Part shown: positions 1-62,267 of the stretch, in pieces
Position numbering within the stretch: position 1 is the stretch's first letter
Layout: each line of letters opens with the position of its first letter
DNA from: Romanomermis culicivorax
Taxonomy: Eukaryota; Nematoda; Enoplea; Mermithida; Mermithidae
Reading direction: 5' to 3'
DNA length: 64,000 nucleotides
NCBI GenBank assembly: GCA_963922205.1
Contig: CAWUHX010000216.1
Location: 496,001 to 560,000, forward strand
Made by a program: the position numbers and the translations under genes
The notes under the pieces: generated by a model
Told to the model about the DNA's origin: nothing
Databases searched by the model: none
Seen by the model: the letters and a program-made list of their open reading frames with translations, nothing else

Positions 1-216
<216 letters not shown>

Positions 217-19436: not shown

Positions 19437-19437
19437 C

Positions 19438-26552: not shown

Positions 26553-26556
26553 ATTG

Positions 26557-27419: not shown

Positions 27420-28070
27420 CTAACCAAACAAATGCAGATAAACTAAAATTATCAGTAGTAGCGATAGAGTACTGATTAAAGGACGAGTGGTGTGGGAACC
27501 AGAACATTGACACGATGATTGAGAAGAATGCGGCCTAGAGTCAGGTAGTACATTTGCATCAGGTACTATTTGAGGACAGTCAGATGGTGTAGAGTTGCAA
27601 GGTAGTGGCATTGGAGGTAAATCAGAAAGTTACAATACAGAGAACTGACCAAGGACATGGCGTGTGACTTGATGTTCAGCTTGAGTATTGGCACAAACAA
27701 TGGCCAACACATGTAGCCTATGAGGGTCATGGACGCCTACCTCTTGAGGTTTCTCAAGAATAGCCTCAATCATCTCAACTGACAAGGTATAGGCAGTTAG
27801 ATAATGTGATGTTTTGTTCAACGATCGACATTTCTGTAAGAAGAGGGTGAGCTCAGCTGTCTGGATGCCAGTGGCAGCACCATTCATGGTAGCCCAGTTG
27901 CGTAACCAGTCAAGAATGGTACGCAACAAGGTATCAGGAATGGTGTGCTCCATAGCCCTATTGACAGAGATCCTATAGGTGTCTTAATACAATTGGTAAA
28001 GAGACATAGTTGCATCATTTGCCTTTTGAGAGGCGCCAGACAGCAAGTACACATTAAGGCGAGATAAGAA
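27420..28070 (-). pseudogene. E 3' terminal frame
   Basis: The last coding part of E. Minus-strand text begins near 28070 (EPDISNFLSRLNVYLL), passes a TAA, and continues as a 107-codon frame 27953-27630 (TLLRTILDWLRNWATMNG, ELTLFLQKCRSLNK). A Ser/Pro/Cys-rich tail 27611-27420 ends in a hydrophobic run (LSLLLIILVYLHLF) that could span a membrane. The 27630-28070 part aligns by eye with the last frame of P (48361-49290: [24 protein letters not shown]), so it is a conserved element protein. The fold looks all-helical. No known family was recognised. An identical copy lies at 60750-61400. Confidence 0.6.
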
Positions 28071-28418
28071 ATTAGAGATATCGGGCTCAGTCACCGCTCT
28101 AGGCATGAAATGAGTTTCAGCCAGATTGGCATGTTGCGCCAATGGAGGAGCAGACTGTGATGTTGTAGCAGTCTTGGAAATAGTTGATGGTACTCTAGAT
28201 GACTGACCCTGATTGCGGTAGACGAGGTTGATTGCTGAACCACTGGATCTTGCTGAACAGATGGTGGAGGTGGTGGAGGCAGGATACTGATACTGAGGGA
28301 CAACAGCCGGTTGGTACTGTTGCTGAACGTAAGGCTGGCAGATGGGTGCAACAGCAGCGGGAGGCTGTTGTGATGCACTGAAACCAGGTGGAAAAGAGAT
28401 TGAAAACAGTGATGGAAG

Positions 28419-29359
28419 CTACTCTCTAGGCACCTTAGGAACTGTTTGTCGCCTGGGGTGTGTCTTAGCTATGGGTTTGGCAGAGGCCTGAGGTGGTGTG
28501 AAACACTGAGGCCTGACATGAGAATGGTGAGGTTCATATTGCTTAGATGTAGAAGGTTTCTTAGATTCCGCTTTGGTCTTTGAAGCATTGGTGCCATTTT
28601 GAGCCACTGGGGAAGACTTTGCCATAGGTTTGTGAGATTTACCAGATTTGTCCTGCAGATCTATCTCTCCTTTCTTGAGTTGAGAACAGAGATAGTGAAG
28701 AACCACTTTCACAGGTTTGCCAGAAATGTCAAGGTTGTGGAAATCATTGACAGTCATGGCACCAGCTTGGAATTGAGATAAAGCTTCAGCTTGATCTTCA
28801 TGTGTGAGCATAGGACCAGAAATTGGAGTAGCAGAAGTGGAAAGTGAAGGTTTTGGGACCACTGAGGCTGCAGCAATGTTTGGAATAGGATAAGATTGCT
28901 TAGACTTAGCAGGTGAGCTTGACTGAGCTGCAGAAGTGGATGGTTGACGCTGAGCAGCAACTTGAGGTTGTGGTGCGGCACTCTGAGGTGAAGGCCTAAC
29001 AGAAACAGATGGTTGTATGGCTACTGTTGTTGGAATCGTCCCTGGCTGACCCAAGGATGGGGCAGGATTCCAAAAATCATCTCATACAGAAATAGGAATT
29101 CATGGTCCAGCAAGAGGCTAAGCTCTCCTTGGGAAGGTGAAAAATCCATAGTAGGAGGAGTGGGTAAGTTATTACATTTCAGAATATTAGCTGCTATGCG
29201 AAACAATTCCCAGTCAATAGTAACACGCTGATGGAGGTCAAGCGTGGGCATATTTATTAACACAAGAATTGTTGAAGGTTGAACAGAACGTGTGGCAGAA
29301 GTGGAGGCTACAGTAAACAGATTATAAAGTGAGGTACATCGGAATAGAATAGAAAGCAT
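28419..29359 (-). pseudogene. E Pro/Ser/Gln-rich 3' frame
   Basis: Two overlapping frames, 29359-29021 and 29054-28419, with a further piece 28378-28091. The first contains IDWELFRIAANIL followed by LPTPPTMDF, which matches the P segment near 47105-47200 ([16 protein letters not shown]). The second is a low-complexity Ser/Pro/Ala/Gln-rich chain of 211 codons with a compact insert (HEDQAEALSQFQAGAMTVND) and a basic tail. It corresponds to the proline-rich frame of P (46974-48353). No known domain recognised. Its 3' portion (28419-28851) is copied inverted at 59969-60401. Confidence 0.55.
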
Positions 29360-30089
29360 CTAGTCCCACATATATTAGCTTATTACCCGAAAATTTGTGT
29401 TTGGATGGTGTGGCGTAATACATGGAGTTTTTAGAAAAGTCATGGTTTAAAGAAACCGTATCCCAAGCTCACATGCATTCTATGCATGCTTTGAGAGTGT
29501 GGCATTCAGGGAAAAAGTCGATAAGCCCGGCTTTCTCGAAAATATCTGGAGTTTTCTCAATCTGTTTCACGCTTCCGAAAATGTCGACCATTGGTATCTT
29601 GGGGATGACCATTGGTTCAGCCTTTTGACTTGCAGTGCGGAAAGAAGGACCTACCAGAGTATACGGTGCATGCCAGTCATTGTCAGCATCAAATGTTGCA
29701 ATGATGGCATGGGTGTTATCAAAATGCTTAAAGAAGGCAGTCCAATCTTCCTCCGTGGCTATAAGAGCTTCAAAAATGAGAGCCCTGCCGTCTGGATAGG
29801 CGAGTTGCATTTACCTGGGTACAGTCTTGGTATTAGAATTAAACGGTATAAAAGAAGAATGTGAAAGCTTTGACAAGTCCGATGTGTTAATTGATTCAGT
29901 GTCAAAGCTGATCAGAGTGTATCCACGAAAGTTGGACATCTGCACTGTGGACAATGCTGAATGCAGATGGCCTGGGAGTATAAACTCTGGCCAAGAAATG
30001 AAACTAGGATGATGCTGGAACAGTGACATGTACCACTGCTCGAGCTTTCTTACTCTAACGAGCCCCTTGACGATGAACTCTAAAATCAT
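29355..30089 (-). pseudogene. DEDDy 3'-5' exonuclease-like protein of E
   Basis: The frame runs leftward from an ATG at 30089 in one phase to at least 29355, with two internal stops (TAA at 29811-29813, TGA at 29469-29471). Residues 1-60 form a helical N-terminal region shared with P. Then comes GYTLISFDTE (FDTE at 29895-29906), fitting exonuclease motif I (D-x-E). Motif II follows as AIIATFDADND (29676-29693), after a hydrophobic strand PDGRALIFEALIAT. A region PMVDIFGSVKQIE and HTLKACIECM corresponds to the inter-motif helices. Motif III is YVGLDAF (Tyr at 29370-29372, Asp at 29358-29360). The order D-E, D, Y-x3-D is that of RNase D/WRN-type exonucleases, which remove nucleotides from 3' ends. 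It sits downstream of integrase where some retroelements have env. Confidence 0.62.
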
Positions 30090-31432: not shown

Positions 31433-32330
31433 TTATTTAGTGAGAGCTGATGGCTGAGGAGGACCACCAGCTTCAGCAAAAAAGATTTCCCTAGCAGATC
31501 GTCGAATATAATTTTTCAGGTGAGAGATGGATACAATTTGAGGTCTACCAGGAGAATCTGGTGCATCAATAGTGATGACATTATGCTCAAGAGTAGAGGT
31601 GTCAGTAACAATGTACAGGCTGATGTAGTCGGGCTGTATCTAATTACCTTTCTTAGAGTTAACCAGTAACATGAGATCATGTATGGCAATCCCACGATGT
31701 TCAACTTTTTCTTATTGTAATAGGATTTGCTGACTGTTGCAGCTCTTTCCAGGTTTTCGCTAATGTTTTTATAAAGATTCAGATGAGATTGAGTGAGGAT
31801 ATGCTGATAGGCATCATAGTTTAAAGGTAAGGTCAAACATTTCACACATTCCTAATCAAACCTAATTTGATGCTCGTGGCCTATCAACAATTTGAAAACA
31901 GAATGGCATGTAGCAGTGTGATGAGTAGCATTATAAGTGAAGACTGCGTAGGGTAGGTAACATTCCCAATTATTGGAGTCTTCCATGGCATACCTTTTTG
32001 GTTGAGAAATTAATGTTTGATTGAATCTCTCAACCATCCCATTGCACTGAGGGTGATAGGCAGTAGTTTGAACTTTCCTAATCTTGAGTAGCTCACAAAC
32101 GTCTTGCATGAGTTTTGAGGTGAAACAGCTACCTTGATCAGAAAGCAGAAATTGAGGAGTTTGCATGGCGTCTTCCATTCTGGGCCACCAGAAGTGAAGC
32201 TTGATGGCATCAAGGGTATGGTTGTGCCATTGATGGTACATAATTTTTGCATCATGGAATTGGTGAAGAACGGTATCAACAAGTGCAGTAGGAACAACGA
32301 GTTGTCTCAGTGCCTTAAACTGTCTGTAAA
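31433..32330 (-). pseudogene. pol: Integrase of inverted E, internally deleted
   Basis: Integrase inserts the cDNA copy into the genome. The N-terminal finger shows its His pair (HQFHDAKIMYHQWHNH) and the WWPRMED end, but the two finger Cys and the first catalytic Asp are missing. At about 32163 the text jumps from EDAM to TPQFLLSDQGSCF, which holds the second Asp. About 100 residues present in P are absent, in frame. The third acidic residue is intact in NGMVERFNQTL, preceded by TTAYHPQC. The C-terminal part (31845-31433) ends at a TAA with PPQPSALTK. The deletion alone makes it inactive. Confidence 0.85.
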
Positions 32331-33130
32331 GTATACCATCTTCAATCAAAAAACAGGTAAGAGACTTAAGATGATTACCAGAGTTAAGAGCAGTTATAAT
32401 TTTAGTTAAAACAGGATCCTCATTTTGAAGTCGAGTAATTTCAGCTGGAGAGGCAATAGAAGGTTGTTCTACTGCTGGTAACTGGAAATAATCTTTTAAC
32501 AAAGCTTGAGGATTGGACACAGTAGTTTGAGGTGTGTCAGAGGTTTTAGCCATAGAGCAAGTAACTGGGTCTATGATAGGAATATCGAACTCAGTAGCAG
32601 TAGGTAAAATAGTGTATGCCGCTGTGATGGAGGAAAAAATTTCCTTAGAAAAAGTTTGAGATTGTTCAGAAGAGCGAAATTCAGATCTGAAGATTTCAGA
32701 AGGGAGTTGTTCAGTCGGAGGGATAGGAGCCCATTTGTGAAGATCTTTATGAGACAGAAAATCTGCGCAGGCATTATCCTTTCCTCTGACATACTCTACC
32801 TTATAGTCATAGTCCTGCAAGCTAATTGCAAAGCGTTGAAGTCTAGAGTTCCTATGTTTCTCATCTTTTAACAATTGTAAAGGTTTATGGTCAGTACACC
32901 CTAAGACACATTGTCCATAAACAGAATGTGGGTACTTTCAGAAACCATAAACAATTGCAAGACATTCACCTTCAGTAGTACTATAGCGAGTTTCTGCATC
33001 AGTTAAGACACCACTATTATAAGCGATTATCCACTTATCGTCACCAGATTCTTGATGCAAAACTGCACCTACTGCCATAGACTGGCATCTGTTTGAATGA
33101 TAAATTAAGCTTTACCATCGTAAACAGGGT
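32331..33130 (-). pseudogene. pol: RNase H domain and spacer of inverted E
   Basis: The Ty3-type RNase H removes the RNA strand during reverse transcription. Seen in order on the minus strand: YDGKANFIIQTDAS (start, first acidic residue), IIAYNSGVLTDAE, STTEGECLAIVYG, TDHKPL and YVRGKDNACADFLS. It is broken by a frameshift near 33075 and a stop near 32929. The remaining 32331-32740 is a variable Ser/Thr/Pro-rich spacer to the integrase, open in the frame 32874-31852. Confidence 0.85.
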
Positions 33131-34110
33131 AACCCAGCAAAGGACTAGATGTGAGAGCAATTTTGATCTCATCAAATGCTTGTCTTTGAAGATCAGTAAT
33201 AGTGTAGGTTGCATCTTTTCCAAGCAGCTCATAGAGTGGTGCGGATAAGGTAATGAGTTTAGGAGTAAAGCACCTGCATCATTGTACAAGGCCAAGAAAG
33301 CTTTGCATCTACTTTTTGGTACTCAGAAACTGGTAATCGCAAATAGCTTTTACCTTATCTGGATCAGTAGAGATGTGGTCAGAATTCAGAAGGTGACCAA
33401 GAAATTTGACCCTAGGAGGTAGAAATTCACGCTTATCAGGTCTAAGAGTGAGAATAGCATCTCTGAGCACTTTGAAGATCATCTGGATGTGTTTCAGATG
33501 CTCTTCACAAGTTTAAAAAAAATGATGATATCATCTATGTAAAGTAAACAGATTTTCGAGATATAGGGCTAAAGAATTCCTTCCATCAGATGTTGAAATT
33601 CTGCAGGAGCATTTTTCAAGCCAAAGGGTAAAACCTTGAACCAAAAAAGTCCTTCCTGGCAGATGAAAGTAGTTTTGTCACGAGATTCAGAGTCAAGAGG
33701 TACTTGCCAAAAGTCTGCTTTAAATTTGAGAATTCTGAAAAACTTTGCATTTCCCATTACATCTAGGTAATCATCAGTTCTAGGAATTGGAAAATGATCA
33801 CTAGGTGTAACTTCCTTAATGCCTCGATAGTCAACCACTGGATGCTGAGAATGGTCCTTCTTCTTCACTAGAAAAAGAGGAGCAGCCCAAGGGGGCTGTG
33901 AAGGTCCAATGAAGTCTTTATCGAGCATTTCCCGAATGTGAGACCTAACTACAGGACCTTGTTCAATGGGAGCACAATAGTAGTGTCTAGGGATGGGTTG
34001 AGCATCGCCATTATCCAGCTTCACCATGAGGTAATGAGTAAAAGTAGGAAGATCACCAGGTAAGCTGAAAACATCCCAATACCTTTTGAGTATCTTAATG
34101 GCTTCAGCCT
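33131..34110 (-). pseudogene. pol: Reverse transcriptase of inverted E
   Basis: Copies element RNA into DNA. The fingers and palm are read from 34100 to 33572: [38 protein letters not shown] and LPFGLKNAPAEF. An in-frame TAG at 33569-33571 precedes PYISKICLLYIDDIIIF; the catalytic YIDD is intact at 33530-33541. The thumb ([20 protein letters not shown]) continues to 33131 with more stops. The typical LDLxxGY motif reads LKFKADFW, itself decayed. This is a Ty3/Gypsy RT by motif order and by the following RNase H and integrase. Confidence 0.9.
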
Positions 34111-34801
34111 TCTGAGTGGGTGAGACAAAGGTATTTTGAGTCATTTTTTGAAGAGCTAAGTAAAGTTTTTGAGAATCGGAGGTATTAGGCAGAGAGTGAT
34201 CTAATGCAGCAGGTTGGTGATCAGCTGGATCAGGCTCTGATGCAGCTACAGCAACATGAGAAAGAGAATCTTGTGAGCCAGTGTGGGACTTTTCCAGAGG
34301 GTGCTTTACAACAGCAGCTACTTGGTTAGTGCTAAGCTTAAGGCAGTTTCCAGAGTTATATATTGACAAACAGAAGTGGACAAGTTTCATTACTGATATT
34401 AATCATTGAAGTTTCTACCGGAAATTCTTTCCCATTAGAAGTGTTATGTGCAGGTTTAACTATTAGATCAGGTATGGATGTTTCTGTATGTGGAAAAACA
34501 TGACCAGGAATCCAGTGTTGAGAATAAGGTTGAATCTTAACAGTAGCAGCAGCAATAATAAAGATAGGTATGGCAAGTTCAGTGACAACTAGATTGTTGG
34601 AATCAACAACTGTGGAAGTGTCAGTTTGAACAGGTCGATCAGAGGATTCAGCTTCAACCTCCTCCACTGGCTCATCACTCTCGAATGATGGATAGTCTGA
34701 AGATTGGGCATGAATCAGAATTTCTTCTAGAATTGGTCCTTCAAGACTGGTGAGAGTTGAAATTTCTTCAGGTGAGTTAGGTAGATGTCTAGGAATTATG
34801 G
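34032..34801 (-). repeat. Protease-RT linker segment, left copy of direct repeat
   Basis: Repeats 51462-52227 in the same orientation, with a visible number of substitutions and one 4-bp difference (tatata against tata near 34363). Both encode the acidic linker between protease and RT of E ([35 protein letters not shown]). The two copies flank the M/P insertion, and they differ more from each other than the inverted arms do. Confidence 0.9.
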
Positions 34802-36192: not shown

Positions 36193-36196
36193 CTAG
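36193..36196. repeat. Target site duplication CTAG of P (left)
   Basis: ctag before the 5' LTR of P; the partner is ctag at 50456-50459 after the 3' LTR. Joining the M gag at this 4-mer gives a continuous gag. Confidence 0.85.
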
Positions 36197-36781
36197 TGTT
36201 GTAATGTGTTTTCCGCCAATTTTGTTGTTTTGTTAAAGAAAGCAAGTGGCCCGCAGGGCTATGCCGACCATGATGCCCGCTGAGCAACGCGGACCATCAA
36301 CAGTCATCTTACCGTAGTGCATGTCAGTACGCATGCACTGGGTTCTCTCTCAGTATTTCCATTCTTTTTATTATTGATATATACTTTTTACTAAACATGT
36401 GCCCCGCTGGCCGCCATTGCATTATTCTTCGCCTCCCCGCATGCAACTGTCTATTTTTTTTCATGTCCCAGTGCATGGAAGTGGATTGTTTATTTTTCAT
36501 TTCTCGTTTGTCCTCGCCCTGTACGTAAGTATTTGTTTTTCTTTCGATTGCATAACATCAAAAGGTAGAAAACTCACTTCCCTCAGTTTTACGCAATTAG
36601 GGAGACAATTAAGGAAACACCTTTTCCTTATATGGTGGGATAGTTGGTGTCCGGTTTAAGCACAAGCAATTAAGTTAATCGGGTAAACCTGGGCATGGGA
36701 AACACGTATATTAAGGACCAATCCAGGAATCCCAATCCCGCCTGTGACTCATCAGCGCAGGACACAAAACCAAATACAACA
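36197..36781 (+). repeat. 5' LTR of element P
   Basis: TGTTGTAATGTG ... AAATACAACA, 585 bp, with the perfect short terminal inverted repeat TGTTGTA/TACAACA. It contains the pyrimidine-rich ttctctctcagtatt, a T-rich stretch and the sequence tgattgcataacat. The 3' LTR (49882-50455) is 574 bp; the two differ at scattered sites and by a small block near 36256-36282. Confidence 0.95.
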
Positions 36782-36782
36782 C

Positions 36783-36800
36783 TGGTGACCATTTGGATTG
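36783..36800 (+). promoter_or_regulatory. Primer-binding site of P
   Basis: TGGTGACCATTTGGATTG, one base after the LTR. M has TGGTGAACACTTGGATTG at the equivalent place. The cognate tRNA cannot be named with confidence. Confidence 0.7.
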
Positions 36801-36918
36801 TACGCTTCCTTTCCCCGCCGTTGCTTTGCAACAGACTACACCAGCAAGCCTCAAAATTTGACCATGCCGTAGCTGCGCCCAAGGTTACAAGAAAGGTTAT
36901 TATACCATCCAGAAAAAG

Positions 36919-39023: not shown

Positions 39024-39629
39024 ACAACGCGGCAAGAGTTCAACCGTCCAACCTATGCCGCCCACTCACAGCAAACCCACTTTCGGATCAATTCCAACAA
39101 TATCCATGGCCAACGCGATTGGAGACCCCATCCCAGAGCACTGCCCCAGAGAGGTTCAAACCACCTGCGCGGCGCGCGAAATTATTTTTATGAAGGTAAC
39201 TCTATACAACGCCCCAATGAGTTTGTTCAGAACACCTACGCCGTCTACCCAAATCAGCAATTCCGGGCACCCTGGGAACAACACATTCCCTACAACGCCA
39301 TGCCGGCCCCATATGTTACAACGCCTACAGATTCCTCGTGCGCTAGTTCTCAATCCTCCGAGCTACACCTAGCCCTACCGGCGTTACCACCATTCACTAC
39401 CCTATCAAGGACTGCCCTCGATACATGTGCTATCAATCAATCAACTTCTGCCACCAATATGGTCATCCCGTCGAAGGAAATAGTGTCCGCCGCACTGATT
39501 GTGAGCCCCGGGTTAGTCTGTTGGAATGCAACCGGCCGCGCTTTTCAAGACCCTTGTCACATCGGCTCGTCCGTCTGCTAAATCAATAATCTTACGCCGT
39601 CCTCGAAGACTTTTGTTTGCAAATACGCC
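39024..39629 (+). pseudogene. Region between nucleocapsid and protease of P
   Basis: Frames change several times (39055-39372, 39300-39581). Text such as [13 protein letters not shown] and YPNQQFRAPW is Asn/Gln/Tyr-rich, like the same region of E after its knuckle ([16 protein letters not shown]). This is probably the C-terminal gag tail plus a spacer that is not conserved at residue level. Confidence 0.5.
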
Positions 39630-40304
39630 TCTACAAGAGCTTTCCAAATCTCTATTAAACTCGGAGCCCTTAAAGCGCACGCGCTTATCGACACAGGTGC
39701 CCAATGCTCCATATTGTCATCAGGATTAGTCGAACACGCCTTCAACAAACAATCACTCCAACTCCCAATATGTGGTAAAATCAAAGTAGCCGATGGCGCC
39801 ATCGTCAACGCCCACGGCCCAGTAGTAGTCACTATGGAATCCGCTTTTGGTGAACATATGATCAAGTGGGTGATTCTCGAGGATGACAGAAATGATCAAT
39901 GTATCATCGGCACCGATTTTCTGGCACACCTGGATATCCATGCGATTTTGAACTTCAAAGAAAACTATATCGAAATACAAGACAAGAAGTTGCCGCTCAA
40001 AGTAATCGCCTCCGTCCGCCCTCAAACGGAATTGTTTCTAAATGCCGTGAATGATAACATTCTCAAAGAAATTCCCGAAGAGGATCGAGTAAGCTTCTAT
40101 GATGATAAATCCAATATTTTCAGTCAACCCGAAGAAATCGAGGCCGAACAACCAATCGGGCAAGCTCAACCTAGTCCACACCAACCGCCATCCTGGCAGT
40201 TGGAGGTTACCGAGCTGGCCGAGCCAATTTCCTTGTGGCCCAAGTATCTATTTCGATATCCCCGCATTGCCAACAATGGGTCAACAGCACCGTCTTCCCC
40301 ATGA
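39630..40304 (+). pseudogene. pol: Aspartic protease of P
   Basis: Retropepsin that cuts the polyprotein. The frame gives HALIDTGAQCSILSSGLV with the catalytic DTGA at 39690-39701, then GKIKVADGAIV (flap region) and CIIGTDFLAHLDI, the second conserved strand. After about 110 residues an acidic linker follows (EEIEAEQPIGQAQP). The frame ends at 40304 and the reading moves to the RT frame near 40235, so one frameshift separates protease and RT. The protease itself looks intact. Confidence 0.88.
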
Positions 40305-41644
40305 CAACGGCAACCATTCCAGACGTCATCATCCAACTGTTAGCCACATACAATAAAGCCGCCGAGCTCCCAATTGAAACTGCAATGATCAACATTACGA
40401 AAGGTCACTGCCCACTACTTTTCATCAATAATATGCCAAATAGCATCAAACTCTGCCAGAACCAGCTTATCGCAATGGCAAAACACACGCTAGGTTACGC
40501 CGAATCCTATGCCGATTGCCAGGTAGCGACCGCCTCCACTGACCACGATTTGACCGATCTCGATAAGTCATTCCCTTGTCATACTGTGCAGCAAAAATTG
40601 GAGTTCGCCTTGAACAAGATGACCGAAAAAACTTATGTTTCCGCCGCACAAAAAACAAAGGCTCTTTGCATGCTACGACAAAATTGCGACGTTTTCAGCT
40701 TGCCCAGGGACAAACCAACTATCACCAGTGAATTGACTGTCAGCATTGACACAGGCACCGCAAAGCCCGTATCATGCCATTACTACCGCGCTGCAATGAA
40801 GCAAAGACCAATTGTATGCCGCCATATCCAAGAAATGCTTGACAATGATTTTATCAAACAATCCCCCTGGCCCTGGGCTGCGCCGCTATTCCTCGTAAGG
40901 GAGAAAGATGGCTCTTGGCGACCCGTTGTCGACCACCGCGGAATAAATGATGTTACACCAAGCGACAAATTTCCAATCCCGCGCATTGATGATTACTTGG
41001 ATGCCATGGGACAAGCAAAATTTTTCACCACACTCGATCTCAAGGCAGGGTACTGGCAAGTACCCCTCGACAAAGACTCTCGCGACAAAACAACCTTCAT
41101 CTGCCAAGAAGTTTTGTTCCGATTTAAAGTTTTGCCATTCAGTTTGAAGAACGCGCCAGCCAAATTCCAACGCCTAATGGAAAGAATCCTCCGCCCATAC
41201 ATCTGGAAGATTTGCCTCATTTATATCCATGATATTATCATTTTCTTGAATTTGTTTGAAGAACATTTGGAGCATTTACAAATCGTTTTTGACGTCCTCC
41301 GCACAGCCAACCTCGCCCTTCGGCCAGACAAATGTGAATTCCTGCCGCTGCAAGTCAAATTCCTGGGACATCTTCTTAGTGCCCGCAGAATCGCTGCCGA
41401 TCGGGAGAAAGTCAAAGCTATTGTCAAGTATGAATTCCCCAAGACCAAAAAATGTATGCAAAGTTTTCTAGGTTTAGTCCAATGGTGCAAACGATTTATC
41501 CTGAATTTGGCGACATGGTCCAGTCCTTTGTACCGACTCCTATGCAAAGACGCCCAATATATTGCCACGGACGAACACCACGCCGCATTTGAAGGTATCA
41601 AAGCAGCACTCACGTCATCCCCATTTATCCACTACCCAGTCTAG
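40235..41644 (+). pseudogene. pol: Reverse transcriptase of P, active-site change
   Basis: A 469-codon open frame. Linker, then RT motifs in order: [81 protein letters not shown], and [11 protein letters not shown] at 41223-41234 where YxDD is expected. The first Asp of the pair is His (codon CAT), which should abolish polymerisation; E keeps YIDD. The thumb follows ([20 protein letters not shown]) and the frame ends at TAG 41642 (E has Tyr at this codon). The family is Ty3/Gypsy by motif set and domain order. Confidence 0.93.
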
Positions 41645-42462
41645 GATGGAAAAGCTCAATTCGTAATTCAAACTGACGCCAGTACGACCGCCATCGGAGC
41701 AATCTTGTACCAAGAAAACTGAAACGATCAATGGGTCATCGCCTACAATAGCCGTGTACTCACTGATGCCGAAACCTGCTACAGTATGACTGAGCGCGAA
41801 TGCCTCCTCATTGTCTACGGCTTCAGAATGTATGGCCACTATGTTTATGGCCAAAAAGTAATTGTTCGCACCAATCACAAGCCTCTCGAATGGCTCAAAG
41901 ATGAAAAGCAACGAAATTTGCGCCTTCAACGTTTCGCGATAAACCTCCAAGATTATGACTACAAGGTTGAATACGTCAAAGGCAAAGACAATGATTGTGC
42001 CAATTTTTTGTCCAGAAAAGACGACCACGATAAAACGCCGATCCCGAATACCGAAAATTTAACCGCCAAAATTTTCCATAAAGATTTTCACCCTGCTGGT
42101 GCAATATCGACGGCCAACTTAACAGTACCCGATATATTCCCAGCAGCAGCCTCGCCGCCCACCGAGGTCGATGCAAACGTTAACGCCATCACCCATGCAA
42201 TGACCAAAAAGACCATCAGTCAACCCACACTCTCGGATTCAATGCCATTGATCGCCGACTATGCACCGCCTCCAGCCGGAGCCATAACAATCGCCTCCCA
42301 CGATGAAGTTTTACAAGCACAGGCCGCGGACCCCCCTATCATAGCAATCGTCACCTCTCTCCAAAGCCCCAACATTGCAAAGCGCCCACTGATTTTCTTC
42401 ACTGAAGACGGACTTTTGTACTGCCAGATCAATTAAACCAAGCAATTAGTTGTCCCGCATCC
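41645..42462 (+). pseudogene. pol: RNase H domain and spacer of P
   Basis: FVIQTDASTTAIGAILYQ, then a TGA at 41719-41721, [37 protein letters not shown] and [16 protein letters not shown], the usual Ty3 RNase H series including its acidic residues. From about 42040 there is a Pro/Ala-rich spacer to the integrase with a TAA at 42434-42436. The spacer resembles that of E only weakly. Confidence 0.9.
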
Positions 42463-43559
42463 ATGGTTGATCAAATGCTACACCAATTCCACTGTGCAAA
42501 AATTCTGAACCACCAAGGGTCAAACCGCACACTAGCAGTGATCAAAGCTCATTTTTGGTGGCCCCAACTGGAAGAAAACGTCCGTGATTGGATCAAAACC
42601 TGCAAGATTTGTCAACTGACCACACCCCGTACATCACCGCCACCGCCGCTGTTGCCGATTCAACCAAAACATCCTTTTGAGATCGTGGCCACCGATATTG
42701 TCAATATTTCGCCGGTAGAAGAGAAACGCCCATACGTTATTGTTTTTCAGGATTATTTTATGAAATGGGTTTCCGCACATCCAATACCCGACCAAAAGGC
42801 TTCAACAATCGTGGAATGTTTCGTGAACAAGGTCATCCTAACGCATGGTAGCCCGCTTGTTCTCCTTTTGGATCAAGGTGGATGTTTCACATCAAAGCTT
42901 ATGCAAGATATTTGCGACCTACTCAAGATACGAAAAGTCAAAACGAACGGAATGGTCGAGCATTTCAATTGAACGTTAATCGCCCAACTAAAAAAGTACA
43001 CCGTGGATGACCCGGACAACTGGGAGCGATACTTGCCATATGCCGTATTTGCTTACAACGCCACGCCCCATACAGCTACGCGCCACTTGCCTTTCAGCTT
43101 ATTAAGAGGCTACGAACCTTGCATAACCTTCGACTATGACTGTGCACGCCGACTCATGTTGCCGCTCAATTACAACGCTTATCAGCATATTCTCAGGCAA
43201 GCGCAATTCAAGATGCACGAGAAGATAAAAGCTAACCTCGATGCCGCCGCCGCGGTCAGCAAAGAATATTTCGACTGAAAGGCCCACAAACGCGACTTCG
43301 CCATCAAGGACCTTGTCCTTTTGACCAATATGCCCAAGGCAAAAACAAAATCCAACCAGACTTCGTTGGACCTTTTCTAATCACAAATGCATCACGTGCA
43401 ACGGAAAACATTGTCACCATCAATTCACTCGATGCCCCAGGCCACCTGCAAACCGTTTCCACGACGCAATTGAAACCATTCATACCGCGCCCCGCCAAAG
43501 AAGCTTTTGAACTCGAAGTCGGTGGTCCCCGCTTGCCTCACACTTCACGCCGCCAATAG
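42463..43559 (+). pseudogene. pol: Integrase of P
   Basis: The finger is complete: [17 protein letters not shown] with two His and CKICQ with two Cys, separated by [13 protein letters not shown]. Core: VATDIV (first Asp), [14 protein letters not shown] (second Asp), [12 protein letters not shown] (Glu). The residues TAYHPQC found in E between KVQT and NGMVE are missing, an in-frame 21-bp loss beside the catalytic Glu. TGA codons at 42970 and 43276 and a frameshift near 43335 follow. The C-terminal domain (KNKIQPDFVGPFLI, a GPY/F-type motif) ends at TAG 43557. No chromodomain was seen. Confidence 0.9.
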
Positions 43560-44636
43560 TTTGCATCAAAATTATTTCTTTTGTGATATGGCGCTCATCA
43601 CGCCAAGTTGTACATAATTTTCGCATCTGTTTAATTTAGATCATGGCGACCATGTTGACGAGACAACAAGGCAGTTCAAGCGTACCACGAGCAGTAGTCT
43701 CCCTTCACACCATTCACAATCAGTACAGGACTCACCGACTTTACAACATCGCATTACACACCTCCCCCATCCCCACACTTTTGCCGTAGAAGGGGGTTTC
43801 TTCTTTAATGTTAGGTTCTGTTCAGCGCGAGGCCATTCGGTATATTTCCGCCTGACCCTGTCCGCATTCACTCTCATAAGATCAATTGAGAAAGGTTGAT
43901 TTTAGTCCCAATTAACATAGTGGTGTTTGTGTTGCTTTTTGTAACCGTAGTTTTGCATTTTTCTTACTTCACACTTTCTTCACCTTTCAGCGGCTTATTC
44001 TTTTACTATTTCATTTCTACTTTTCGCTTCCAACCACAATAGTAGCATTTTCCAGCCGCTCTCCAAAAATATTTTTCGAAAGGACGACACCCTCGACCTC
44101 GTCCGCTTCTGCAGCCGATGAGCCTCCACCGTACTGCGAATCGATCAACATCATGAATGCTATGTATGATGGGCGGAACAGCAGCCCCATCAAAACGATT
44201 TGAGCTTCCCCTGTGATGGTACTTTTATTTTCATGCTTTCCTTGCTTCTATTTTTTGCATGCTCTTTTGCTTGGGACCCCATGGGAACCCCCACTCTGTA
44301 GCCCCGCCCCAGAACCCATGGTCAGCTGCCGGGATCACTTCATCATCAAGTTGTGGCGCCTACTGCACCACAACCGGCCGCTGCTTTGACTTCTGCATAC
44401 GACAACTCTCATTATCTTGCTATCATAGCCTGTCCCAGTTGCCAAAATGCCCCCGTCAAAGTGACATCACCGCCCAAGCCACCATTTCCCTAGAGCGTGC
44501 TTCCTCCTTTCAAATTGCAAGCAACACCACATCTTTTCTTGGTTCTACTTTAAAGTCACCCTCCTGACTCCATTTCGCTCCCTTGATTTGGTGCCTAATG
44601 TGTCATATGCCAAATATCACGCTCGCTCTTGTTTAA
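43560..44636 (+). other. Gap between pol and 3' frame of P
   Basis: Largely non-coding; a short possible frame starts at ATG 43643 (MATMLTRQQGSSS) but meets a stop after about 50 codons. T-rich pyrimidine stretches at 43960-44030 and 44225-44270 could be splice acceptors or promoter elements for the downstream frame; this is conjecture. E has a gap of similar length. Confidence 0.45.
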
Positions 44637-46040
44637 GAAAACAATGTCAAACGATTGATCCCTGCCGGCGATTTGGAATCCTGGCATGTCTCCATGTATG
44701 CCAGGCCTTGGAATGTGCTACCGCTGCCGATTTTTCTCTCACTTGGAAGTTTGGGGCAGGCCTTGGCCGCCCAACCCACACCAAACTTCCATGGTTACAC
44801 TTTGGTCGGTTTTGACACCGAATAGATCATGGCCGCAGACATGACGAATTTTCAATTTACCGTGCCTATGCCAGCCGATTCCACGGCGTCTAGCTATCCA
44901 CAATATGTTCAACTCACGTTTCCCAACGGCACGATGTTTGTTTTCGAAACTTTCACCGCTACCCCAGAAGACTGGACCGGACTTTTCTCCCTAGTCGACG
45001 GGGAGGACACCATCATCGTTTCCTTTGATGGAGCCGACCATCGAAAATTCCGGACTGACCATCGAAAGAAGAACAAAGATCCCATCATCAAAGCAATCCA
45101 TTTCGATGCGTACTGCGTAATCGGCAACATCGACATCTCCCCGCAGCTATAGGAGCTGGCTCGAAGAATCAGATTCTTTCCCAAAAAACGCACTTTGAAA
45201 GCTACCGTTTCCGCCATGTGGGCACTGGACATTTCCAAACTCACCCTAGGATTCATAGCTGCTTTGCGATTTTTCAACAATCCGTCAACATCATTCCTGC
45301 AATCCGACATTCTTGCGTACGCGGCCCTCGACGCCTACTATCTGCTTTTATTGTTTTTGGCTTTCCCCTGTTAGGGCTTCATCCCCAAGGTCTACAACGC
45401 CCCCGCGTTGTTTCCCCACCACTCCTTTGATGATGGCGAAATTGACCATCTTACCCAGACAATCATCACCCCCTTTCACAACGTTGCGTTGTCAGATGTT
45501 CTATCCCCCGACTCCACCGATCGAATCTACACCACTATTTCGCAAGTCGCCCTACCTGCGATCATGCAAGACGAGGTTCTTTCAGCTTATAAACTTTTCA
45601 TGTACGATTGCATATCGGCGGACCACGGTCGGTCTTTTTGTTTAGGAACGGTGCCAAATGGTTTCCCCAACGTCAAAGTTTTGACGCGTACGACTCATCC
45701 AAGGCTGCTCACCACCCCGAAGGTGCCCAAGAAGAAGAAAAAGAAACAAAAGGATGAGTGGAACAAATCGCCAGATGTCTCCGATGACGAAGATCCGGCC
45801 CTCCAACCACGATTGATATTCGACGATGCGAAACGCCTTCAAGCAGCCATCACCTCGGCCATGAAGAGTAACCTTACCGACCGGATCATTGAACTTCTCA
45901 ACTTCCCAGTTTTGCTGATGTACAAATTGGCTATTCGAGATCGACTTCAATATGATGACCCCACCTTGCCACTGATTCCGCACGAAGTTGACGACCTACT
46001 GATTGAACACCTTGCCGCCCATCAACCACTTCGGCAATGA
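44637..46040 (+). pseudogene. DEDDy 3'-5' exonuclease-like protein of P
   Basis: One phase is protein-like from 44637 to 46040, interrupted only by three TAG stops (44823, 45150, 45372). The N-terminal 60 residues match the E homologue (VKRLIPAGDLESW). Motif I is GYTLVGFDTE (44796-44822), then a strand-rich part VQLTFPNGTMFVFE. Motif II is DTIIVSFDGAD, then FDAYCVIGNID and KKRTLKATVSAMW. Motif III is DILAYAALDAYYLLLL with Tyr at 45318 and Asp at 45330. YAALDAYxLL is very like the third motif of RNase D/WRN exonucleases, and spacing of about 170 residues from motif I to III fits the family. A C-terminal extension of 210 residues with a KKKKKKQK cluster follows. No signal peptide or membrane segment, so not an env. 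Expected role, inferred: trimming nucleic-acid 3' ends. Confidence 0.68.
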
Positions 46041-46757
46041 ACCTATCAGGGTACCCATTACCATTATCACCCTTCCACCATTCTTAACTTTTTACAGGTG
46101 GATGGCGATTGGTTCCGATGGCTGACTTCTTTCATGCCATTGGCCGCACTTTTGGCTTCTCCGTGTTCTGCTGCCGGATATGCCTATGTTAACTATTTGT
46201 TGCTTCGCCACTCCCAAAATATGGATTCCGCAACACGCACTGCATTCTATGATTGTATGTGGTACCGCACTGACAGCAACCCCAAATCGCGCCTCACCGA
46301 TTGGATGAATCGCATCCTGGAGAGAGAGCCGTCTTTTGCCAGCGACCCTGGAACATACGTCTGCAACCGGTTCGCCCTACGCCTGATCATCTTCAACGAG
46401 GAATTCCACATGGAAACGTCCGTTGAACAGGTCGACATTGACAAATCCGACTATACGGCCAATCCGCACAGCCGTTTTCACTTCTATTCAACGTTCCTCG
46501 CAATTATCGACTATCAAAATCGATTTTCGTTCCCCGCACCCGTGTATGCGTACCCCATGCCGACTATGGCTTCGGTGCACACGCTCATCGCCGAGGAACT
46601 GCTTGACCGCCCTACTGGTGTTGAAGTGGAACCCGCCAATGAGGAACTTCTGGACACGCCAATTTTTGATTTGAACATAGTGAAGCTGCTGCCGTCAACC
46701 GACGCATCGGCCCTTCCACCAATGATTAACTTCTGGACATGCCAATTTTTGATTTGA
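46041..46757 (+). pseudogene. Continuation of P 3' frame, unrecognised
   Basis: After the TGA at 46038 the same phase stays open to 46757, so it may once have been one protein with the exonuclease. It reads [48 protein letters not shown] and [16 protein letters not shown]; globular, helix-rich and without a recognised family. Element E lacks this part: its text goes from exonuclease motif III straight to the proline-rich frame. At the end, an 83-bp tandem duplication (46645-46727 and 46728-46801) shifts the phase. Confidence 0.5.
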
Positions 46758-46801
46758 ACATAGCGAAGCTGCTGCCATCAACCGACACGTCTGCCCTTCC
46801 T
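46645..46801 (+). repeat. 83-bp tandem duplication in P
   Basis: aacttctggacacgccaatt at 46645 recurs as aacttctggacatgccaatt at 46728, with about 70 bp of close similarity. As 83 is not a multiple of three it breaks the frame. Confidence 0.85.
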
Positions 46802-48353
46802 ATGCACACTGCCCCATCCGATATTACGGCGACTGCTACGCAAATCACCGATTTTTTGAAACTGACACTCGACCAAATTTCAGACATCGCCCCGGTGCCG
46901 ATGGACGAATCTACCCCCATCCAGTCCGCCACAATGGATACCGAAACGACGACCACCACTGACCAAGCCTGCAATGGTACCTGCCGTAGACCTGCGAATC
47001 TATTTGGCCACTCCGGCAATTCTTCCCGGACCTCTGATCATAGCCACCGTTGCGGCTGCCAGGTATAGTGCCCCTGTCCGTTTCTCGCAACATATAATTT
47101 CAGATACTCAATGGAACACACTGGCCGCAGCACTTACCGCATATCACTTTCCTCCGCCGCCGTATATGTTGTTCCCCAAACACCACTGGATGGACTACCC
47201 TGATGCGCTTAAGGAAGAGATACAGCGCATTTTGTTGCCACAAATGATGCCCACAGCCCCGGTTCCTCAAATTGCTCAAATGGCTCCAGTTATTCCTCAA
47301 GCAGCCGTACAACTGCCGATCCCATTACCACTGCCGATTGCCTTACCGCTGCCACGGGTGCCACAACCACCGCAGCCCGCGACTCTATTGCCGCTGACAG
47401 CACCTGTGGATGTTCAAACCCCACAGGCACCCAGCACGTCCACGCCCGCTCTAGATCACCATGGCCAGCCTATTCGAAAGCCCAGACGTTATGAACACTC
47501 AGTCAAGCACAAACAACACCTTCACGAAGAGGCCGAATATCCCAAATCCCACAAAACATGCATGACGGACGAACCCCGCACCAGGCAAATGTGGCCACCC
47601 AGTACCTCGCGTACTGAGCGCTGCAAAACGCCTAGCGAACAAACAACCCATCGCTGCAAGCAAGGCGAAAAACAGAAGACCCGTGAAGAGGCTCGTAAAT
47701 CTTCACAGACAACTTCGAGGCCGTTACTGAAACCCACGTCCACGAAAACCCCAGCGCCAGCAAAACAACCGCCGCCTGCCGACCAAGCCGATAGACACTG
47801 CTCACGCCATGAGTCACACTCTCATGATGATCGCCACCGTAAAGAAACTCTGCAAACTCACGCCACCAGCCACGATAGCCATCAACATAAACGCTGCAAT
47901 GATGCACCGCAGCATAGCACTCAGAGTGAGCAAACGGGCCAGGTGCACTCAACCAGATTTCATGAAGAAGCGTACTGGCGCGGTTTCCGCCAGTCACCAC
48001 CAAAGTTGACAGATTACATCAGCCCGTTGCATAGAGACGCCGAAATTCAAAGACGTATGGAAGCCTTGAAAAACCTGCAGAAAGACGTTTTCAAGGCTCC
48101 GCTACCGCTGCCGCCTCCGATGGATGTGGAACCTGCCACGTCATCCGCAACTTCCCTTACGCCTACAGCCACGTCGCAGCCACCCATGGCTCCAACATCC
48201 ACTATGATGACTATGGTAACTCACACCATGTCGCTGCCGCCTACAGTCCCGATGTCGGCTCAGAGTACCCCACAAACCCAACCGCAATTGGTTATAACAA
48301 CTAGGCCAGTCCTCGGAGTCGCTCGGCCAACCAGTTCTGCACCCAACTGTTGA
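46739..48353 (+). pseudogene. P proline/His-rich 3' frame
   Basis: Frames 46739-47068 and 46974-48353 (459 codons), joined by a frameshift near 46980. Opens with [16 protein letters not shown] and [13 protein letters not shown], shared with E (29359-29021). A long stretch of [17 protein letters not shown] type follows, then a Lys/Arg/His/Thr-rich low-complexity part ([17 protein letters not shown]), then a short ordered part ([30 protein letters not shown]). It looks like a disordered scaffold or nucleic-acid-binding protein. No known domain. It ends at TGA 48351. Confidence 0.55.
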
Positions 48354-48360
48354 ACTGCAA

Positions 48361-49290
48361 TTGCCCAGCGAAGCAACCCGACTGCCCAACTATATGCATT
48401 TCCCAACCGTGGATTCACCGCATTGTGTTACACTATTGACGCCTCGCCATCCACGGTGTACCGATCCATCCGTTGAGTTTTTCACACCGCGTATGTTGCC
48501 CGAAATGGTTTTGATCAACTTCTTCAGCCACCTTGGTATTCACATCACTATGGCCGTTCACATTCGCGCAACAAATGCTTCACTCCCATTGTACCAATAT
48601 TTTCGCGAACACTATCGGCCCACGTACCGAGAACAACAACCCCCCGTTTCGCATGACGTGGCCGCACTAATTCTGCGATGGGTTGCTGGCCTGTGGGCTG
48701 AGGAGCTCAGCGTCGTTGACGCCATTCACACCGCCCATTTGGCCCTCTTTCTCTACAAAGCTCGAGGTTTGGATAACCTGTTGTGCTTATTGCAGGCCTA
48801 CAACACCACTGTCCGCTTGATCAACAGCTGGATGGCATACCCGCAATATGCGCCATTCCTGCAACCGCCCGAAATTGCCCATATTCAACGAATTTACCTA
48901 CAGTACCATAGTGAAACCGATCGCCCCGTACCTCTGTTGCGCCGGCACGATTTTTCCGCCTGGTGGAATTTGTTGCCACCGCGACTGCTGCCGCCAACAG
49001 GTTTGCTATCAGACTGCCCGTCCTTGATCGCTACACAATTGCCGCCCCGCGGTGTGAATCCTCTTTCACCGCTCGGATCGCAAACATACACTTCATCATC
49101 TCGCCGCCGCGATAACACCCATTATGGTCATAATCACAACCCTTGCTCTGTTCGCTTTGATAGCCATGACGATCCCCGCGACCCCCATGGTTATCACAAC
49201 AACCGCTACCGCCAAGAAAATTGCAACCGCCGCGACTATCAACATCAATCTCGATCTGCCTCCGATACTTGCCACCATCACCGCCATTGA
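48361..49290 (+). pseudogene. P 3' terminal frame
   Basis: A 309-codon open frame, entered by frameshift (first codon TTG). It holds [57 protein letters not shown] and [12 protein letters not shown], all helix-like, which match the E frame at 28070-27630. The last 80 residues are Arg/His/Asn/Tyr-rich and end CHHHRH. Intact in itself. No known family; conservation in two diverged elements says it was under selection. Low-complexity basic C-terminus suggests nucleic-acid binding. Confidence 0.6.
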
Positions 49291-49863
49291 CTCAAATTTT
49301 TGTACAGTAATATTCGTTTTTTCTTTTCATTTTTTGTTTTTGTCCTCATTTAACCTCGTCTAATACTGGTTGTTTTCTTTTTCTAATCTCTTTTTGTGTG
49401 CTTTATTTGTACTAGTTTCCCCAGCGCACGTGCAGCCGATGCTAAGACCACGCAGTGAGATGACTCAAAATGTTCTACCGCCACAGGCCCCCACTTGGGC
49501 CGTTTTTTGTCCTTTCCGCCTCCAATGCTGTGTTCACGTTTTGTTATGGCCGCCATCGTAGTGGCCGGCCTCACCCTCCCATCTGCATGGTGTCGTATGC
49601 TGGTGCGCTCCAGTATATCGGTGTGGACGGAGTGACAACGCGAGCTGCAGCGTTGCTGAACTTATGGCCTTGCTAATTGCAACTTGGGTTGAGAGGTCAC
49701 ACCCTACGCGCCGCCCAAAATCGGCTCAAACAACCCCAACAAACCATCGGCCCCACTGTGTGATACTGAAGATTCCTTCGGCGACCCCGATGACGGCCTG
49801 TAGTGGCGGTTCCCTTCCCCTTGCATCTTTTCGTTTTTTCTTGACAATCGCTTAGGGCAATCT
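49291..49863 (+). other. P 3' untranslated region
   Basis: Between the last stop and the PPT. T-rich at 49315-49400, then a less AT-rich part. Short open frames overlap here but show no resemblance between P and E. Confidence 0.5.
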
Positions 49864-49881
49864 ACGGCAAGGGGGGAGATG
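49864..49881 (+). promoter_or_regulatory. Polypurine tract of P
   Basis: gcaaggggggagatg immediately before the 3' LTR; the plus-strand primer. Confidence 0.8.
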
Positions 49882-50455
49882 TGTTGTAGTGTGTTTTCCG
49901 CCGATTTTGTTGTTTTGTTAAAGAAACCAAGAGGCCCGCAGGTAGCAAGTGGAGTGAGCAACACAGACCATCAACAGTCGTCTTACTGCAGCGCATGTCG
50001 GTATACGTGCACAGGGTTCTCTCTCAGTATTTTCATTCTTTTTATTATTGATATATTTTTTTTACTAAACCTGTGCCCCGCTGGCCGCCATTGCATTATT
50101 CGTCGCCTCCCCACACACAACTGTCTATTTTTTTTCTCGTCCCAGTGGGTGGGAGTGGATTGTTTATTTTTCTTTTCTCGTTTGTCCTCGCCCTGTACGT
50201 AAGTATTTGTTTTTCTTTCGATTGCATAACATTAAAAGGTAGAAAACTCACTTCCCTCAGTTTTACGCAATGAGGGAGACAATTAAGGAAACACCTTTTC
50301 CTTCATTGGTGGGATAGTTAGTGTCGGGTTTAAGCACAAGCAATTAAGTTAATCGGGTAAACGTGGGCCTGGGAAACACGTACATTAAGGATGAATCCTG
50401 GAATCCCAATCCTGCCTGTGACTCATCAGCTCCCGACACAAAACCAAATACAACA
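49882..50455 (+). repeat. 3' LTR of element P
   Basis: TGTTGTAGTGTG ... AAATACAACA, 574 bp, followed by target duplication ctag (50456-50459). Partner of 36197-36781; similarity is high but with many single differences and short indels. Confidence 0.95.
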
Positions 50456-50459
50456 CTAG

Positions 50460-51461: not shown

Positions 51462-52258
51462 TAATGAGTAAAAGTAGGAGGATCAATAGGTAAGCTGAAA
51501 ACATCCCAATATCTTTTGAGTATCTTAATGGCTTCAGTCTTCTGAGTGGGTGAGACAAAGGTATTTTGAGTCATTTTTTAAAGAGCTAAGTAAAGTTTTT
51601 GAGAATCGGAGGTATTAGGCAGAGAGTGATCTAATGCAGCAGGTTGGTGATCAGCTGGATCAGGCTCTGATGCAGCTACAGCAACATGAGAAAGAGAATC
51701 TTGTGAGCTGGTGTTGGACTTTTCCAGAGGGTGCTTTACAACAGCAGCTACTTGGTTAGTGCTAAGCTCAAGGCAGTTTCCAGAGTTATTGACAAACAGA
51801 AGTGGACAAGTTCCATTACTGATATTAATCATTGAAGTTTCTACGGAAAATTCTTTCCTGTTAGAAGTGTTATGAGCAGGTTTAACTATTAGATCAAGTA
51901 TGGATGTTTCTGTATGTGGAAAAACATGACCACGAATCCAGTGTTGAGAATAAGGTTGAATCTTAACAGTAGCAGCAGCAATGATAAAGATAGGTATGGC
52001 AAGTTCAGGGACAACTAGATTGTTGGAATCAACGACTGTGGAAGTGTCAGTTTGAACAGGTCGATCAGAGGATTCAGCTTCAACCTCCTCCACTGGCTCA
52101 TCACTCTCGAATGATGGATAGTCTGAAGATTGGGCATGAATCGGAATTGCTTCTAGAATTGGTCCTTCAAGACTGGTGAGAGTTGAAATTTCTTCAGGTG
52201 GGTTAGGTAGATGTCTAGGAATTATGGTAAGAGGTATCCTCAACATATCCTTGCTCAA
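51462..52258 (-). pseudogene. pol: E protease-RT linker, right copy, cut by M
   Basis: Acidic linker ([45 protein letters not shown]) from the protease to the start of RT (MTQNTFVSPTQKTEAIK, RYWDVFSLP), interrupted at 51462 by the LTR of M. It is the same sequence as 34032-34801. The frame has one stop near 51575. Confidence 0.85.
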
Positions 52259-54956: not shown

Positions 54957-55096
54957 CTTATTAAAACTTGGAAAATAACCTAGAAAATAACAGATGTCCT
55001 ACGAGGTCTAGCCTCCACTATTTGATGAGAAGTAAAGGAAACTAGGCCTCAATGCAGAGAAAGGTAAGTACTTAGTAAACCTAAACAGATCACCAG

Positions 55097-55515
55097 TAGT
55101 ATATTTTTAAAATAATTTTCTTCTTTTATTTGAGACTCTTGAATGGTGATCCATCAAAAAATATTAAGATTTGATTTTGAATCCAAAATGATATTGCAGG
55201 ATTTTGTTCCAAGAGGTTCAGACCTTAATACTAAGACTTACCAAGGCCTGGATGGGGGCATGATCTCCCTTTCAGATGACAAATGCTCAAAATTTTTATC
55301 AACAAATAAATATTCTAATTTCTACTATGATGGTAATTTGCAGGATGAGGAGTTTATTAGGCAGAGGTGAGAACATTAGATAAAATATAAAACAAAAAAA
55401 CTCTAATTCACTAACCCAAATTCTGGCACATGATGCAATGACTACAGTAATCGCATCACCCAGTTTGAATATGATATTTAAACAGTTGTGGGAGACTGGA
55501 AATGTCACTACAACA
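55097..55515 (-). repeat. 5' LTR of inverted element E
   Basis: Reverse complement of 19018-19436, 419 bp, flanked outside by attg (55516-55519). Confidence 0.92.
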
Positions 55516-55519
55516 ATTG

Positions 55520-61400: not shown

Positions 61401-61727
61401 TTTTCTTTAATTTCTCTGCTCAAAAAGTTTTAACCTCAGTGCTTTCGTTTTTGCTTCAAATTTTAAGAGCTTTTGTACAGTTTTGGAGCAAACCTGTGAA
61501 AATTTTTCTTTTGTGCATATTTTCATTTGTGATGACTAAATTCCCACAACCCATTTGCTGTTGCCGTGTCTTGCCTAGTTAAGTAAGTATCTATGAGCTC
61601 ACTTTCTCACCAGTTTGAATTTTGTTACGACTTGCCCTCATTCTTCCACAAATGAGGTTTGGAAATTCTCCCACTGCAATTACTCAGCCAAACCTTGTAG
61701 TCTTGATCACTTAAGGCGACCTGCTGC

Positions 61728-61740
61728 AAGGGGGGAGGGG
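61728..61740 (+). promoter_or_regulatory. Polypurine tract of forward E
   Basis: aaggggggagggg directly before the 3' LTR. Confidence 0.8.
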
Positions 61741-62263: not shown

Positions 62264-62267
62264 CAAT

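What the first reader, a model, noticed from the sequence alone, without database searches (positions are those of the whole stretch)
44637..46040. A Ty3/Gypsy retrotransposon carries a DEDDy 3'-5' exonuclease-like gene in the env position
Downstream of integrase, element P has a frame with FDTE (motif I), SFDGAD (motif II) and YAALDAYYLL (motif III) in the order and spacing of RNase D/WRN-type exonucleases. Typical Ty3/Gypsy elements encode nothing here, an env, or in some plant lineages an extra RNase H. A 3'-5' exonuclease acquired by an LTR element could trim cDNA or tRNA primer ends, proofread, or attack host RNA. Motifs are seen; function is inferred.
Basis: partly seen in the sequence, partly recalled or inferred. 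Interest (0 to 1): 0.88.

Follow-up and report, generated by a model that had tools for sequence, protein, structure and literature searches.

The report
Nematode retrotransposon with exonuclease-like gene
An old, broken copy of a virus-like jumping gene, apparently from a mosquito-parasitic worm, carries an extra gene that looks like an RNA- or DNA-trimming enzyme; similar cargo is already known from rotifers, so this extends a known oddity to another animal group.

Summary
A frame at 44637-46040 (+), downstream of integrase, has FDTE, SFDGAD and YAALDAYYLL in DEDDy order. It lies inside one LTR element (36197-50455; LTRs 89% identical; CTAG target duplication). This copy is dead: three in-frame stops, and motif II has lost the position where relatives carry the Asp that aligns with RNase D motif II. 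A second, diverged element on the minus strand has a homologue after its pol (about 31-35% aa identity) that keeps all five active-site residues. Three database searches gave 115 proteins, all named Romanomermis culicivorax. Homology to RNase D-type exonucleases is supported moderately: profile comparison P=2.1e-4 (HHalign probability only 46%), 0 of 300 column shuffles as good. Pfam gives only sub-threshold PF01612 matches, and two AlphaFold models were too poor to test the fold. The cargo is not unprecedented: DEDDy ORF3s are published for bdelloid rotifer Juno and Vesta LTR elements. What appears new is the occurrence in a nematode, within a longer ORF3 with another conserved region. Catalysis is unproven; annotated copies do not preserve the catalytic acids better than other acidic positions. 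New member of a known kind.

The parts
36197..36781 (+). 5' LTR of element P
   Evidence: 89% identical to 49882-50455; TG...CA ends, CTAG duplication at 36193-36196 and 50456-50459 read
39582..40304 (+). protease frame of element P
   Evidence: PF13650 E=7.1e-6
40175..41644 (+). reverse transcriptase frame of element P
   Evidence: PF00078 E=5.8e-31
41723..42436 (+). RNase H frame of element P
   Evidence: PF17917 E=1.1e-20
42406..43559 (+). integrase frames of element P (broken; H2C2 zinc finger and core)
   Evidence: PF17921 E=5.8e-17 and PF00665 E=1e-10 in 42406-42969; later frames
44637..46040 (+). exonuclease-like frame (ORF3, first part), three in-frame TAG stops
44811..44822 (+). motif I, FDTE
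45021..45038 (+). remnant of motif II, SFDGAD; following D-W-x-GIYALLG of relatives is missing
45318..45347 (+). motif III, YAALDAYYLL (Y-x3-D)
   Evidence: PF01612 profile positions 142-166 of 173
46041..49290 (+). continuation of ORF3, broken; its last frame 48298-49287 has a homologue in element Q
   Evidence: relatives run through 46040; for 48298-49287
49882..50455 (+). 3' LTR of element P, preceded by a purine tract
32020..34544 (-). pol remains of related element Q (RT, RNase H, integrase)
   Evidence: tblastn with P frames, RT 57.5% over 280 columns
29325..30089 (-). exonuclease-like homologue in element Q, with SFDTES, NDW, YVGLDAFY
27744..28109 (-). homologue of the C-terminal ORF3 frame in element Q
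   Evidence: 31% identity, E=1.1e-12

Best explanation
Element P (36197-50455) is an old, dead, 14.3 kb Ty3/Gypsy-type LTR retrotransposon, apparently of the mermithid nematode Romanomermis culicivorax or a close relative. Its lineage carries, downstream of gag-pol, a long ORF3 whose N-terminal domain derives from a DEDDy (RNase D/WRN type) 3'-5' exonuclease. Shown: position, inclusion in one LTR-bounded insertion, recurrence in a second element, profile similarity to RNase D, and protein-level constraint between the two lineages. Inferred: intact copies make a metal-dependent 3'-5' exonuclease. A Lys-rich stretch after the domain suggests a nuclear protein, and I think it most likely trims 3' ends of the element's own RNA or cDNA around reverse transcription or integration. 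Sub-odds: about 0.85 for a DEDDy-derived ORF3 of an LTR element, about 0.5 that intact copies are catalytic, about 0.3 for the trimming role. The confidence below is for the first of these.
For: LTRs, target duplication and PR-RT-RH-IN order. Flanks of P match contiguous stretches of the related element into which it inserted. Homologue after pol in element Q with all five active-site residues. Codon-position identities P against Q: exo 0.50/0.58/0.32, RT 0.68/0.82/0.31, RNase H 0.58/0.73/0.36. Profile against 16 RNase D-type sequences: score 34.5, P 2.1e-4, 0 of 300 column shuffles, best 24.4; motif III part P 9.4e-4, 0 of 100 shuffles; motif I+II half P 0.034, 2 of 100 shuffles. PF01612 at E=0.029 with motif III on its own profile end. 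Gene models joining the domain to protease, RNase H or integrase zinc finger: P0043, P0036, P0031. Lys-rich stretch in 21 of the 31 rows of A1.
Against: No Pfam hit above cut-off in any piece or in the 31 relatives scanned; no PDB sequence hit; HHalign probability only 46% and failure with enterobacterial RNase D alone; motif I falls outside the confident alignment; both fold models poor. Among annotated copies the catalytic acids are not better kept than other acids (D58 22 of 32, E60 24 of 33, D133 61 of 77, D239 45 of 56; median column 0.84), and 5 of the 13 proteins covering all five positions read D-E-D-Y-D.
Confidence: 0.82

Rival explanations
1. The domain keeps the fold but works without catalysis, as an RNA-binding module in RNP assembly or transport, like Maelstrom and EXD1, which PMC5408684 names as inactive DEDD derivatives.
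For: Catalytic acids in the annotated copies are only average among acidic columns; precedent cited in PMC5408684 (passage).
Against: Element Q, about 31-35% identical, keeps D, E, D, Y and D, and 5 of 13 fully covering proteins keep all five.
Confidence: 0.22
2. The enzyme attacks host small RNAs or other silencing factors at their 3' ends (counter-defence).
For: Cellular relatives such as mut-7 act in silencing (named in PMC5408684, passage); nothing in the sequence here points to it directly.
Against: No direct evidence; the same paper notes that mut-7 itself promotes silencing of transposons.
Confidence: 0.15
3. A captured host gene fragment carried as a neutral passenger.
For: All hits are from one species and many annotated copies are partial or broken.
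Against: Shared by two elements whose RTs are 57.5% alike, with codon-position constraint.
Confidence: 0.08
4. Not a DEDD nuclease: an unrelated ORF3 protein with chance motif matches.
For: Sub-threshold Pfam, no PDB sequence hit, poor fold models, HHalign probability 46%.
Against: 0 of 300 shuffles, both halves collinear when tested apart, five residues kept in element Q.
Confidence: 0.13

Closest known systems
DEDDy-type ORF3 of bdelloid rotifer LTR retrotransposons Juno and Vesta (Rodriguez, Kenefick and Arkhipova 2017, PMC5408684; abstract, section 3.1 and search passages seen)
   Same: LTR retrotransposon; ORF3 downstream of pol; RNase D-like DEDDy domain; present in more than one element lineage; function unknown.
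   Different: Other phylum; rotifer ORFs have DEED in place of DEDD, while D-E-D-D with Tyr is kept here in Q and 5 of 13 relatives; rotifer Juno/Vesta have a dUTPase between PR and RT, none seen here by Pfam; here the domain lies in a longer ORF3. No direct sequence comparison was possible.
Terminons/Athena Penelope-like elements with DEDDy ORFs (PMC6431247 and PMC5408684, passages)
   Same: Retroelement carrying a DEDDy exonuclease ORF.
   Different: Penelope-like, no LTR-integrase cycle, telomeric.
Dada DNA transposons with an inserted DEDDy domain (PMC3706591, passages)
   Same: Mobile element with a DEDDy 3'-5' exonuclease domain.
   Different: DNA transposon; domain inside the transposase.
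Bacterial RNase D (E. coli rnd and relatives)
   Same: Motif order and collinear profile alignment.
   Different: Identities of 17-22% in the main aligned stretches and 12-15% in the N half; long insert after motif I; below Pfam's cut-off.

Membership tests
Ty3/Gypsy-type LTR retrotransposon | Two direct LTRs with TG...CA ends and a short target duplication | tested here: met
Ty3/Gypsy-type LTR retrotransposon | PR-RT-RNase H-IN order | tested here: met
DEDDy 3'-5' exonuclease (RNase D/WRN, PF01612) | Motifs I (DxE), II (D) and III (Y-x3-D) in order | tested here: met
   Met in element Q and in 5 of the 13 relatives covering all five positions; not met in the window copy P, whose motif II lost the Asp
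DEDDy 3'-5' exonuclease (RNase D/WRN, PF01612) | Match above Pfam's curated cut-off | tested here: not met
   14.6 bits against 23.6; 2 of 31 relatives, best E 0.13; none for the X-masked whole frame
DEDDy 3'-5' exonuclease (RNase D/WRN, PF01612) | Profile similarity to RNase D beyond shuffled controls | tested here: met
   P 2.1e-4, 0 of 300 shuffles; halves; an earlier try with enterobacterial RNase D alone failed
DEDDy 3'-5' exonuclease (RNase D/WRN, PF01612) | RNase H-like fold | tested here: inconclusive
   models with pLDDT 47.1 and 58.1; searches with the second
DEDDy 3'-5' exonuclease (RNase D/WRN, PF01612) | 3'-5' nuclease activity | not testable with these tools
   needs an assay
Bdelloid Juno/Vesta DEDDy ORF3 group | Common ancestry of the ORF3 domain with the rotifer ones | tested here: inconclusive
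   No rotifer protein among the 58, 2 and 85 listed hits, but these searches need shared 5-residue words, and rotifer ORF3 sequences were not obtained

The most novel reading that the evidence does not exclude
A nematode LTR lineage captured a DEDDy nuclease independently of the rotifer elements, fused it to a long, probably nuclear ORF3, and uses it as an active factor, either for 3'-end processing of its own cDNA or RNA or against the host's small-RNA silencing; capture of such nucleases by LTR elements would then be convergent in animals.
Probability: 0.2. Interest if true: 0.7.

Novelty: new member of a known kind. Interest (0 to 1): 0.38.

Why it matters
Enzymatic ORF3s in place of env were reported for bdelloid rotifer LTR elements. 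Finding the same kind of nuclease-like domain in two diverged elements of what appears to be a mermithid nematode suggests that DEDDy cargo recurs among animal LTR elements, and it gives a multicopy system in which its role (3'-end processing, RNA binding or counter-defence) could be tested. It is not a first of its kind.

Tried and rejected
Stop-codon recoding: all three in-frame stops are TAG, but aligned relatives do not share one residue at the three places, so decay is the better reading. First profile comparison (35 family rows against 81 enterobacterial RNase D sequences) gave P 0.049 over 32 columns in the wrong register. The second changed two things at once, 104 family rows and 16 more diverse RNase D-type sequences, so it is a second attempt at the same question. 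In one search the whole-length alignment put motif II out of register; the split test put it where expected, with weak significance for the N half (P 0.034, 2 of 100 shuffles), and motif I lay outside that alignment. Two AlphaFold jobs gave poor models (pLDDT 47.1, pTM 0.25; 58.1, 0.30); only the second was searched. Foldseek listed 42 rows at E up to 10, none at E 0.001 or below, none a DEDD nuclease; VIA-align listed 32 rows, none a DEDD nuclease. The protein searches need shared words, and searches scored only about 8000 candidates each, so absence outside R. culicivorax is not proof. Frame 48298-49287 has no Pfam hit at E 1 or below and no PDB sequence hit. Rfam: 0 matches at gathering scores in 27000-53000. 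The host genome could not be searched (genome search did not complete), so copy number, intact copies and dN/dS on DNA were not measured. Paper searches: (Romanomermis + retrotransposon + exonuclease) held 0 papers.

Full report
What is there. It is broken by three in-frame TAG stops and ends with TGA. Aligned relatives do not share one residue at the TAG positions, so I read the stops as decay. Most relatives read SFDGA-x-D-W-(V/A)-GIYALLG; the window copy lacks that last part. The Asp that falls on RNase D motif II in the split comparison is the one before W, and this copy has lost it.

Where it lies. blastn found two LTRs, 36197-36781 and 49882-50455, 89% identical. They begin with TG, end with CA, and are flanked by the 4-nt duplication CTAG; a purine tract precedes the 3' LTR. 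[quoted passage not shown] The element sits inside the 5' part of a related minus-strand element: the two flanks (51104-50454 and 36185-34840) match P at 36595-37246 and 37252-38568, that is, nearly contiguous stretches. The exonuclease-like frame is therefore part of one inserted unit, not a neighbour.

A second element. tblastn with relatives finds a homologue at 30089-29331 on the minus strand (P0001: 31.9% identity, E 1.3e-40), downstream of RT, RNase H and integrase remains (RT 57.5% identical), and a homologue of the C-terminal ORF3 frame at 28109-27744 (31%, E 1.1e-12). The homologue reads SFDTES, NDW and YVGLDAFY, keeping D, E, D, Y and D, though its frame too is broken by stops. Over 237 codons the exo frames of P and Q are 34% identical in amino acids, with codon-position identities 0.50/0.58/0.32; RT gives 0.68/0.82/0.31 and RNase H 0.58/0.73/0.36. 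Third positions are about equally diverged while first and second are held, so the domain was under protein-level constraint, weaker than RT. A first RT comparison ran in a partly wrong frame and was replaced. In two shifted-frame controls the alignments were shorter (64 and 167 codons) and the low position moved with the frame, as expected.

Relatives elsewhere. Three searches of about 5.8 billion proteins gave 58 (E up to 1), 2 (E up to 1) and 85 (E up to 10) hits. All are named Romanomermis culicivorax, 115 distinct proteins together; 103 of the 115 align to the exonuclease-domain profile. The best hit to the window frame is 73% identical, so the window is probably from that species or a close relative; this was not proven. 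Gene models joining this domain to protease, RNase H or an integrase zinc finger (P0043, P0036, P0031) fit the same linkage in other copies, with the caution that they are automatic gene models. P0002, P0004, P0006, P0009 and P0018 run through the position of the window's stop at 46038-46040, so ORF3 is longer than the reported interval.

Is it a DEDDy exonuclease? Single-sequence evidence is weak: PF01612 at E 0.029 for the piece with motif III, 2 of 31 relatives at best E 0.13, none for the X-masked frame, no PDB sequence hit. Profile comparison is better. Against 16 RNase D-type sequences from named records the family scored 34.5, P 2.1e-4, HHalign probability 46%. None of 300 column shuffles reached it; the best was 24.4, and the reversed profile gave 12.1. 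Tested apart, the part with motif III gave P 9.4e-4 (0 of 100 shuffles), and the half with motifs I and II gave P 0.034 (2 of 100 shuffles) with VQL on IQL, the W of EEW/EDW on the W of TDW, and the Asp before W on the motif II Asp. Motif I itself lies outside that confident range; it is placed near the RNase D DTE only in the whole-length low-confidence alignment. An earlier comparison with enterobacterial RNase D alone failed. The fold test was inconclusive because both models are poor.

Is it still functional? Not in this copy. Among annotated copies D58 is kept in 22 of 32, E60 in 24 of 33, D133 in 61 of 77, Y235 in 53 of 57 and D239 in 45 of 56; the median column is 0.84. Among 23 columns with Asp or Glu consensus the four catalytic acids rank from 11th down to about 18th. 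Of 13 proteins that cover all five positions, 5 read D-E-D-Y-D. Many copies are partial or decaying, so this neither proves nor excludes catalysis in active copies, but it counts against strong recent selection on the active site.

Mechanism. Shown: an LTR-bounded inserted unit with this domain in ORF3, a related domain in a second element, and protein-level constraint between them. Inferred: metal-dependent 3'-5' trimming. A Lys-rich stretch after the domain is present in 21 of the 31 rows of A1 and looks to me like a nuclear localisation signal; this is untested. I favour trimming of the element's own RNA or cDNA 3' ends, with non-catalytic RNA binding and counter-defence as rivals.

Comparison with what is known. 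Rodriguez, Kenefick and Arkhipova 2017 (PMC5408684; [quoted passage not shown] PMC6338049 and PMC5718144 (passages) mention the LTR case again, PMC6431247 (passages) the Terminons. PMC3706591 (passages) reports a DEDDy domain in Dada DNA transposons. The kind is therefore known. The search for Romanomermis, retrotransposon and exonuclease together held 0 papers, within an open-access library only. Differences from the rotifer cases: host phylum, no dUTPase seen by Pfam, DEDD rather than DEED in Q and 5 of 13 relatives, and a longer ORF3 with a second conserved region. Whether the nematode domain shares an origin with the rotifer ones is open.

Verdict.

Noticed in passing
window 14561-28855 and 52773-64000: The right end is built of inverted copies of pieces of the left region (5251 nt and 4036 nt at 100%, 1417 nt at 99%, 526 nt at 100%) in a changed order: a recent inverted duplication or an assembly artefact.
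   Followed up: no
window 6360-6543 and 7105-7288: Two minisatellite arrays of 15-16 nt units facing each other, 91% complementary over 184 nt with 561 nt between.
   Followed up: no
window 1-268: Head-to-tail 8-nt repeat at the window's left end.
   Followed up: no
window 48298-49287 (+) and 27744-28109 (-): C-terminal ORF3 frame conserved between elements P and Q (31% identity, E 1.1e-12) without a Pfam hit at E 1 or below or PDB sequence hit.
   Followed up: partly
window 46633-46798: Tandem duplication of 83 nt (89% identical) within ORF3 of element P.
   Followed up: no
window 34032-34809 and 51462-52235: 96% identical direct copies of a protease-RT piece on both sides of element P, so the insertion lies in a nest of related elements.
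   Followed up: no
protein P0001 (A0A915K5M7): The closest relative is named DNA-directed DNA polymerase in UniRef, which looks like an automatic misnomer for a transposon ORF.
   Followed up: no
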